DNA from: Pagrus major
Lineage: Eukaryota; Chordata; Actinopteri; Spariformes; Sparidae
Assembly (NCBI RefSeq): GCF_040436345.1
Contig: NC_133230.1
Coordinates: 18,548,197 to 18,612,196 of the forward strand
Length of the DNA: 64,000 nt
Direction: 5' to 3'
Shown in pieces: positions 1 through 35,108 of this stretch (position 1 is the stretch's first letter; each line of letters begins with the position of its first letter). The position numbers and the translations under genes were made by a program. The notes below the pieces were generated by a model, which searched no databases, was not told the DNA's origin, and saw nothing but the letters and a program-made list of their open reading frames with translations.

Positions 1-2969
1 GAGCTTCCTGGTGCCCAACACCTTGAGGAGCTGGGAGCTCAAGTCCCTGGAGATGGCCTCCACCAGACGCAGTGCTCTCTGGATAGGGTACTTGGTGTTC
101 CTTATCTTTTTCAAGTGAGTGAATATGGCCATCAGGGCCTGACGGATCTTATCAAGCTCAGAAGCAGAGAGCAGGTCATTGAGAGGGAAATCCTTCATCA
201 GAGGATTGTAGTCATTGACGGTTTCCACAGCCTGTTTCAGACCTGTGAGAAGTACAGAGAGGACAAACAATTAATCATACTGTGGCAGAAGTGAAATGAG
301 CCAAAGAAAATTTGTTTCTGCTGGTTGCCACTCACCAGTGTCGGTGTCAAAGCTGACAGTAGCATGGAAACGTTTGCCGTGTTTGAGGATGTCCAGTGTG
401 AGCAGAACCTCAGGGCTCTCTCTCTTCTCCTGGATCCTGTTGAGGGCTCTCTCCAGATTCAGCCAGAAACTGATCTCCTGCAAGGCTGTGCCTGAAGCTG
501 GATCACGATCAAGCTTTGTCACCTTAAAAAAGTACAGATGCAGACAAATAAACCCAGTTGTGAGTTTAGGAGAGAAAATATATTTTTCCATATACCTGTA
601 ACTGTTATTACATGGAGTAGAACATTGTTTTGTTTGTGAGGGAACTATGGGAATGTTTCTTACCTTTTGGATCTCCCTGATCCAACGGTTGACTCCAGAT
701 TGCAGCTGGTTGAGGAAGGTTGGGTCCTCCACTTTGTCGCCAAAGTCAGTGACCTTAGGCTTCTCCCCACGCTCATAGAGCTGCTTGGCGATGTTGGTGA
801 TGATAGGGTGGATGAGCAGGCTGATCTCAGGAATTTCAATATTCTGCTGCAGGTGGAGAAGACCCATCTCCAGTTCAGCAATCTTTTTCTCCACTGAAGG
901 CGCCATCTTATCCCCATCTCTACAGGATTAGGAGAGATTATAGTGTAAATGAATGATCCATCAATGTTACATTATTCCTTCATGCAGGTTCACGCCTAAG
1001 CTTTATAGATGAAAGGTTTTAACAAAATATAAAGACACTTTTTAGGATTACCTGTCTGCCTTGCCAGACTCGCGGATGTAGGACTTGAAGAAAGGAGCGA
1101 CAGCATTGCTGATGAAAGAGTGGAGCGTCTCGTAGGGAGAATCCTCACTCAAGGTCAGAACTCGAACTTGGGTTGATATGGGCTTGTCTGCATCGATGAC
1201 GCCTGTCCTCTTGATCAAAGCCAAGCTGCAGTGAAACAAAGGGTGAAAAATTCATAGTTCAGGATTAATAGAACTGCACAGTAAGTCGAGAGTGAGTGCT
1301 GTGCAGTAAACTAAGAATCTGCTTTCTTAAATACAGGTTACATGAATAATGGGAAGCACTTTTTCAGTTTTACTGATGAAATCGCATTCAGTTGCATGGC
1401 TGAAAGGAAGACTCATTTTCAATGCATTAGTTTCATTATTTACCTGTTAGACTTGATCCCATAGTGTATGTCAATGCTGACATTGTAAGTGATGCACTCC
1501 TTCTCCTCCTCTCCTTCATCTCCAACGTCCTCTGTGTGAGCAACATAGAAAATCTACGTCTTAACTGAACAAATAAACAGATGGCTCATAAAGTCATGTT
1601 CTTTACACTGCCACACATCTTAATCAATGTGTGTTTGCAATGCCCTGAGGTTTTTCACCATGCAAGTTACTATTTTAAGACTTGCCTGAAGCAGTAAGGA
1701 CTGATAGTTCAAGGCCAACAAAATTACTCTGCTGCTAATGGTTTTATCTGAATATAAAAAGCCACGTTAAAGTAGGATGACAGTGCAATCTGACACTCAT
1801 CTGCTTCCACCCATTTATGTCCCCACCCTCCTTCAGAAGTGAGGTCATGGTTCGAAGGGAAAGATAGCCATCTGTAATCTCTGCATTGCAGCAGTTGTAT
1901 TCTTAGTGCAAAAGCATGAATAGGTTGGGGAAGTTACTGTCTGGCTGGGAATCCAAATCCTACAGGCTCAGACTGTCGCTGGTCATGCTCAGTATCAGGA
2001 GATCAGGACTAAAAATATTAGTAAAAGCAAGCGGCTCTGAAGCTTATTTTGCCTGGAGAAAACTGCAGATCATGTGTTCATTGACACAAGCTGGTTCACA
2101 TGATAAAACCGCAAGAAGGTGCAGATAACATGACTTGGAAGTGATTACAAAGGAGTCATTCTCTTTCAATGAATATGATGTTGTTGCTTGTGCCATTTTT
2201 ATATCCAGAGCACAGTGTTTGTTCTATTCTCTTTTACACAACACAACAGTTGTCTAAAAGTACTAATTGAATATGCTTTATAAATAATCAGAGCAAAGGT
2301 AATGCTGACTTGCAATGAATTTTACAATACCTTAGCTAAATGTTTATAAAATACGTCTTAATTTGACCAGTTTTGACCCTTTAAATGATATCCAACACTG
2401 AGCAGCTTCATTGCAGTGTATTATGCTGTCATGAGCTTTTTTTTCTCCTCCCCACCCAGTGTGGCGTAGTTGCCTTACAATTAACATTGTCATGGATGGT
2501 GATAGCACGCTAGGCTAGCACTGTTATCGAGCCGGCTGTCAAATAATGCAGATTAGCTCACATGCACTGTTAATTTAGCTAACTAACAGCGGATTTAAAT
2601 ACATTTCGCTTGTGAAGAATGAATGGTTAGAGACAAATTGCGTTCATATTATAGTAAAAACTGAACAGTCGTGTTATTGATACAAAACTAGCTAGCTAGT
2701 CGCTTCTGCCTAGATGTACCTTTGAGTGCACTTCTCTCGACAAGGATGGTGTGAAGCTGAGGGTCTGCCAGAAATTTCCTCATCTGCTCCACGGCGCTCT
2801 TCTCCTCCAGGGCGGTTTCCAGTGAGGCCGGGGCCTCGCCGCCATCTTCCAGGAGCAGCGGTACCAATTTCCTTATGTGCTTCTGCAGCACGGAGGTATC
2901 AGCGACCGTCTGAACGGCCGACACCTCCATGGTGCCGGAGTTTTCCTCCGTCCCCCCGCCGTCAGACAT
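1..2969 (-). CDS. dync1h1: Cytoplasmic dynein 1 heavy chain 1, 5' exons 1-6 (copy A, partial at window edge)
   Basis: Heavy chain of cytoplasmic dynein 1, the ATP-driven minus-end microtubule motor; these exons encode the N-terminal tail used for dimerisation and intermediate-chain binding. Coding exons on the minus strand are 2720-2969, 1444-1531, 1052-1225, 664-919, 336-522 and 242 down to the left edge; all visible junctions are GT-AG and the phases join without a break. The start at 2969 gives [19 protein letters not shown], then [17 protein letters not shown], [24 protein letters not shown] and [12 protein letters not shown] segments that match vertebrate DYNC1H1 as I know it. The remaining exons (motor domain included) lie outside the window. 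Residues that differ from copy B agree with mammals here ([24 protein letters not shown]), which suggests this is the functional gene. Gene identity is very secure; functionality is inferred. Confidence 0.95.

Positions 2970-35108: not shown

What the first reader, a model, noticed from the sequence alone, without database searches (positions are those of the whole stretch)
1..35108. Tandem segmental duplication of a dync1h1-tmem30-kdm1a block with reciprocal decay
Seen: two dync1h1 5' ends (minus) and two kdm1a 5' parts (plus), both with introns, in the order dync1h1-A, kdm1a fragment, dync1h1-B, tmem30, kdm1a. Shared sequence includes promoters and introns. This is exactly what a head-to-tail duplication with breakpoints inside dync1h1 and in kdm1a intron 10 would leave: the outer copies complete, the inner copies truncated. 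The inner copies have decayed, and the left tmem30 is absent.
Basis: partly seen in the sequence, partly recalled or inferred. Interest (0 to 1): 0.75.

Follow-up and report, generated by a model that had tools for sequence, protein, structure and literature searches.

The report
Tandem gene-block duplication with dead copies
In this fish genome a stretch holding the front part of a motor-protein gene, a whole membrane-protein gene and the front half of a chromatin-enzyme gene was copied once, head to tail; the inner copies were cut short at birth and have since rotted, so one good copy of each gene remains here. This is an ordinary but unusually readable duplication.

Summary
One DNA-level, head-to-tail tandem duplication made two units, -4785..8625 (A; negative = left of the window) and 8626..27975 (B). 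The join, 8625|8626, is blunt: kdm1a intron 10 fused to dync1h1 intron 19, no microhomology, no repeat found at the breakpoints, so end joining or template switching fits better than homologous recombination. Outer copies look complete: dync1h1-A (2969 to -23888) and kdm1a-B (23768-35108). Inner copies look like pseudogenes. dync1h1-B lost its first ATG, its exon-12 splice donor and sequence between exons 16 and 19, and has a stop; its amino-acid changes run at the neutral rate (pairwise dN/dS 0.51; 34 of 36 changes on B, 0 on A, 2 undecided). kdm1a-A lost its promoter, part of exon 1, and exons 2-6, 8 and 10. tmem30-A is gone; a 2.9-kb array of a dispersed 164-bp repeat stands there. Intron divergence is 3.05%. 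"Reciprocal decay" needs correcting: the inner dync1h1 and kdm1a copies were truncated at birth, so only tmem30 had a free choice of copy to lose. Not novel in kind. More interesting by-catch: dync1h1-A carries two apparently alternative exons for the dynein microtubule-binding domain.

The parts
1..8625 (.). unit A of the tandem duplication (the unit starts at -4785, C16:18543411, outside the window)
8626..27975 (.). unit B of the tandem duplication
8625..8626 (.). tandem junction: kdm1a intron 10 (pairs with 27975) joined to dync1h1 intron 19 (pairs with -4785); no microhomology, no inserted bases as the sequence stands
   Evidence: 2 mismatches in 42 bp before the join against kdm1a, 0 in 60 bp after it against dync1h1; only chance-level matches between donor flanks
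1..2969 (-). dync1h1-A, 5' part of the complete gene (gene runs on to -23888, left of the window)
   Evidence: PDB match to cytoplasmic dynein 1 heavy chain 1
8719..17443 (-). dync1h1-B pseudogene: exons 1-15, part of 16 and part of 19; 81-bp deletion of the first ATG, 53-bp deletion of the exon-12 donor, deletion fusing exon 16 to exon 19, stop TAA in the fused exon
3442..6363 (.). tandem array of a 164-bp unit whose ends are inverted repeats (by eye); stands where tmem30-A and the kdm1a-A promoter would be; right end stops in mid-unit
6367..8625 (+). kdm1a-A pseudogene: tail of exon 1 with its apparent splice donor changed, exon 7, exon 9 with a 1-bp insertion leading straight to a stop; exons 2-6, 8 and 10 missing
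7937..8522 (.). 586-bp insertion in kdm1a-A just after exon 9; reverse strand reads like a piece of a hAT-type transposase (by eye only; Pfam gave no match)
14596..17165 (.). dispersed repeat sequence filling dync1h1-B intron 1; copy A has 598 bp here that do not align to it
   Evidence: 190 matches, itself included; 40 of 290 candidates scored, so a lower bound
18855..21448 (-). tmem30 (CDC50 family), the only copy at this locus; 18879-20626 by the family profile, the N-terminal piece up to 21448 by eye only (Pfam gave no match to it)
23768..35108 (+). kdm1a-B, apparently complete gene

Best explanation
A segment from dync1h1 intron 19 to kdm1a intron 10 was duplicated once, head to tail. Shown: the collinear blocks, the blunt join, uninterrupted outer flanks, and one apparently complete copy of each gene. 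Inferred: the join arose by non-homologous end joining or homology-free template switching, because there is neither microhomology nor a repeat. The event left the outer dync1h1 and kdm1a copies whole and gave inner copies with promoters but without their 3' parts. Those were dead or nearly so from the start; dync1h1-B drifted neutrally. tmem30 alone was duplicated whole; its A copy, the kdm1a-A promoter and the right end of a repeat array are missing together, so the array was there before that deletion or arrived with it. The net outcome is one working copy of each gene and about 14 kb (3428-17443) of relic and inserted DNA between them.
For: Collinear nine-block chain. Junction at 8625|8626: 2 mismatches in the 42 bp before it against kdm1a, 0 in the 60 bp after it against dync1h1, and the next base on either side differs. 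dync1h1-A: segments matching human DYNC1H1 from residue 6 to the C-terminus in order, with no gap over 5 residues between neighbouring segments, then TAG. kdm1a-B: segments matching human residues 1-43 and 103-842 in order (1-118 as one gapped match). Substitutions at 76 of 2495 intron sites (3.05%) and 58 of 3250 exon sites of the main block. Splice-donor loss, lost ATG, in-frame fusion and TAA, kdm1a-A frameshift and exon losses. In the main block no sign of gene conversion: longest identical run 243 bp, P 0.43 in 2000 permutations.
Against: No reads, so a misassembly cannot be excluded directly. No outgroup genome was available, so the single-copy ancestral order dync1h1-tmem30-kdm1a is inferred from the chain, not seen. 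dync1h1-B has no stop in the 1152 codons compared; by hand about 1.9 would be expected (P of none about 0.15), so this does not contradict neutrality but gives it no help. Substitution levels vary between blocks (1.6% in 6850-7936, 5.3% in 3016-3427, by hand), which a single age and rate do not fully explain. Splice sites of kdm1a-B and of dync1h1-A beyond residue 1628 were not modelled.
Confidence: 0.93

Rival explanations
1. Assembly artefact: two haplotypes of one locus laid out in tandem.
For: Tandem placement of similar sequence is a known assembly error (recalled); no reads were available to check.
Against: 3% intron divergence with asymmetric coding change (34 of 36 residue changes on one copy), separate lesions in each copy and a sharp join inside introns of two different genes. 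Haplotypes would not be expected to give a truncated-inside, whole-outside layout with one copy neutral and the other constrained.
Confidence: 0.03
2. dync1h1-B is a working gene for a tail-only dynein heavy chain.
For: A second in-frame ATG in an ACCATGG context survives the 81-bp deletion; no stop in the 1152 codons compared; skipping exon 12 (147 nt) would keep frame; the exon 16/19 fusion is in frame to a TAA.
Against: Amino-acid changes at the neutral rate, 34 of 36 at residues where A and human agree; exon-12 donor deleted. Such a product would also be expected to poison dynein (recalled).
Confidence: 0.03
3. Duplication by non-allelic homologous recombination between repeats.
For: The genome is rich in dispersed repeats.
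Against: The two donor sites share no microhomology; within 1 kb either side only 12-36 bp matches with E of 0.14 or more, none of them at the breakpoints.
Confidence: 0.03

Closest known systems
Tandem segmental duplication with partial genes at both ends (non-recurrent, homology-free type; kind named from recall)
   Same: Direct orientation, adjacent, introns included, end-to-start join, outer copies whole, inner copies truncated.
   Different: Nothing in kind. Only the clarity differs: one join, a readable deletion history, one fully duplicated gene.
Duplicated (unprocessed) pseudogene
   Same: dync1h1-B and kdm1a-A keep introns and carry start, splice-site, stop or frameshift lesions.
   Different: Truncated at birth rather than whole and later lost.

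Membership tests
Head-to-tail tandem segmental duplication | two collinear copies in the same orientation, adjacent | tested here: met
   nine blocks
Head-to-tail tandem segmental duplication | join of the unit's right end to its left end, outer flanks uninterrupted | tested here: met
Head-to-tail tandem segmental duplication | single-copy ancestral order in relatives | not testable with these tools
   the genome tool says that it holds no relatives of this genome
Head-to-tail tandem segmental duplication | physical reality in reads | not testable with these tools
   no reads held
NAHR-type duplication | homologous repeats at the breakpoints | tested here: not met
Duplicated pseudogene (dync1h1-B) | disabling lesions | tested here: met
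Duplicated pseudogene (dync1h1-B) | neutral amino-acid change | tested here: met
   1152 of 1159 codons
Duplicated pseudogene (kdm1a-A) | disabling lesions | tested here: met
Duplicated pseudogene (kdm1a-A) | neutral amino-acid change | not tested
   only two exons remain; their changes were seen but not counted
Duplicated pseudogene (both) | no functional transcript | not testable with these tools
   no RNA data held

The most novel reading that the evidence does not exclude
dync1h1-B, still behind a copied dync1h1 promoter, makes a tail-only dynein heavy chain (start at the second ATG, exon 12 skipped in frame, end at the TAA in the fused exon 16/19) that modulates dynein by competing for partners.
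Probability: 0.03. Interest if true: 0.6.

Novelty: new member of a known kind. Interest (0 to 1): 0.22.

Why it matters
It is a clean, base-resolved record of a homology-free tandem duplication in a vertebrate and of what follows: partial genes at the ends die by construction, and only the whole gene inside has a choice. It also warns annotators: dync1h1-B has long open exons and could easily be annotated as a second dynein heavy-chain gene.

Tried and rejected
Gene conversion between copies: in the main block (-3763..2053) the longest identical run is as expected by permutation; not supported there, not tested in the other blocks. NAHR: no repeat at the breakpoints. Retention of dync1h1-B by selection: the lack of stops looked suggestive, but the replacement rate equals the neutral expectation and the exon-12 donor is gone. 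Of 15 indels in the main block, placed by hand against the exon table, 13 are in introns and 2 touch exons; too few on B alone to argue constraint. Copy A intron 1 (2054-2651) against B (14596-17165): no aligned block between them; B is dispersed repeat. Pfam named neither the 107-aa piece in the kdm1a-A insert nor the N-terminal tmem30 piece, nor the 791-aa reading frame at 54454-56829. Species: 25 contigs and 786 Mb would suit Asian arowana, from recall only; not tested. Automatic splice-site choice failed at dync1h1 exon 2/3 in both copies and at the B fusion; exon 2/3 was set by hand from the sequence. Papers: nine searches. Read: passages of PMC3824068, PMC3228551, PMC5740500 (all three in its reference list) and PMC10916854 (a splicing-category legend, not about DYNC1H1 exons), and section 9 of PMC3228551. 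The rest were seen as listings with abstract starts.

Full report
Coordinates are window coordinates; negative numbers lie left of the window (position 0 is the last base of L003; contig position = 18548196 + p on C16). A is the left copy, B the right.

Observation. The window alone shows seven A/B matches of 60 bp or more apart from the repeat array. Adding flanks shows that the dync1h1 match runs on to -4785. The full chain has nine blocks in order and in the same orientation (units cut at boundaries set, plus strand only). The finding as written is therefore right, but the unit starts 4.8 kb outside the window.

Junction. At 8625|8626 the 42 bp before the join match the kdm1a donor (ending 27975) with 2 mismatches, the 60 bp after it match the dync1h1 donor (starting -4785) with none, and the next base beyond the join differs on both sides. 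So there is no microhomology and no inserted base as the sequence stands. 27975 lies after the tenth kdm1a exon (27802-27903) and before the eleventh (29102 on), so in intron 10. -4785 lies between dync1h1 exons ending -4690 and starting -4792, which I count as intron 19 (exon 2/3 boundary set by hand; a non-coding first exon is not considered). A search of 1 kb on each side of both donors gives only matches of 12-36 bp with E of 0.14 or more, none at the breakpoints.

Outer copies. dync1h1-A: matches to human residues 6-1727 from 2960 to -6467 and from 1731 to the C-terminus down to -23888 (my typed human sequence carries about two extra residues), in order, followed by a stop codon. Its spliced N-terminal 691 residues match human cytoplasmic dynein 1 heavy chain 1 over chain residues 16-706. 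kdm1a-B: segments matching human residues 1-43 and 103-842 in order (1-118 as one gapped match); a 330-aa part matches lysine-specific demethylase 1A in the PDB. Splice sites of kdm1a-B were not modelled.

Inner copies. dync1h1-B: 2935-3015 of A (81 bp, with the first ATG) has no counterpart in B, and B's next in-frame ATG follows; a 53-bp deletion removes the end of exon 12 and its donor; a deletion of about 0.84 kb joins exon 16 to exon 19 in frame and a TAA follows. Codon counts: 1159 codons joined, 7 dropped for gaps, 1152 compared; dN/dS 0.51; 36 residue differences, 34 derived on B, 0 on A, 2 undecided. If A is constrained and B neutral, half of all synonymous changes but all nonsynonymous ones fall on B, so a pairwise ratio near 0.5 is expected. 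kdm1a-A: A lacks B's 24100-25648, 26007-26604 and 27741-27933, which hold exons 2-6, 8 and 10 (exon places); exon 1's apparent donor is changed and exon 9 has an extra base followed at once by a stop.

tmem30. In A, B's 17841-24000 (6160 bp, holding tmem30 and the kdm1a start) is replaced by 2939 bp that are nearly all a 164-bp tandem array. The array's unit has 602 matches in the genome, a lower bound, and the listed ones lie on 12 contigs. Units begin and end in inverted repeats (by eye; minus-strand self-matches). The array's right end in the window stops in mid-unit next to kdm1a exon 1, so the deletion seems to have cut the array too. Of three other array places looked at, two (L011 on C16, L014 on C17) share 600 bp of left flank at 98%, which suggests a mobile element carrying the array; the third (L013 on C19) does not share it, nor does the window array.

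Age. Intron divergence is 76/2495. Without a known species or rate no date can be given; at 1-5e-9 changes per site per year (recalled range) it would be 3-15 million years.

'Reciprocal decay' fits the outcome but not the cause: the truncation of both inner genes came with the duplication.

By-catch. dync1h1-A holds two adjacent 196-nt exons, a at -14714..-14909 and b at -15070..-15265, 160 bp apart, in the same phase, each between AG and GT. By sequence either one keeps frame; both or neither breaks it (196 mod 3 = 1). They correspond to about residues 3295-3359 of human DYNC1H1 (one search aligns 64 of exon b's 65 residues to 3295-3358), the start of the microtubule-binding domain. Exon a matches my typed human sequence at 64 of 65 residues, exon b at 49 of 65, and a and b agree at 48 of 65; of the 58 nucleotide differences between them 37 are at third codon positions, 13 at first and 8 at second. 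So exon b looks old and kept by selection; no RNA evidence was available. Exon b as a query has 2 matches in the genome, itself and exon a. [quoted passage not shown] Eight searches touching such exons listed no paper whose title or abstract start describes one in a vertebrate DYNC1H1; most of the listed papers were not opened, so this is not proof that none is in print.

Noticed in passing
L004:5091-5286 (exon a) and L004:4735-4930 (exon b), minus strand; i.e. -14909..-14714 and -15265..-15070, left of the window: Two tandem 196-nt exons in dync1h1-A, interchangeable in phase and mutually exclusive by frame, both encoding the start of the dynein microtubule-binding domain (64/65 and 49/65 identical to typed human sequence); differences mostly at third positions, so both look selected. 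If spliced as predicted, one fish gene makes two dyneins with different microtubule-binding domains.
   Followed up: partly
3442-6363; L011, L013, L014: The 164-bp array unit has inverted-repeat ends and at least 602 matches across the genome; arrays on C16 (23.97 Mb) and C17 share 600 bp of left flank at 98%, as if carried by a mobile element, while those on C19 and in the window do not.
   Followed up: partly
54454-56832 and -31741..-33195: Right of kdm1a a long reading frame that looks like luzp1 (recalled; no Pfam match); left of dync1h1 a WD40 protein that looks like wdr20 (WD40 by Pfam; name recalled). By recall these are neighbours of KDM1A and DYNC1H1 on two different human chromosomes, so the locus may bridge two ancient synteny blocks.
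   Followed up: no
15679-15802 and 16376-16498: A 124-bp inverted-repeat pair inside the dispersed repeat in dync1h1-B intron 1.
   Followed up: no
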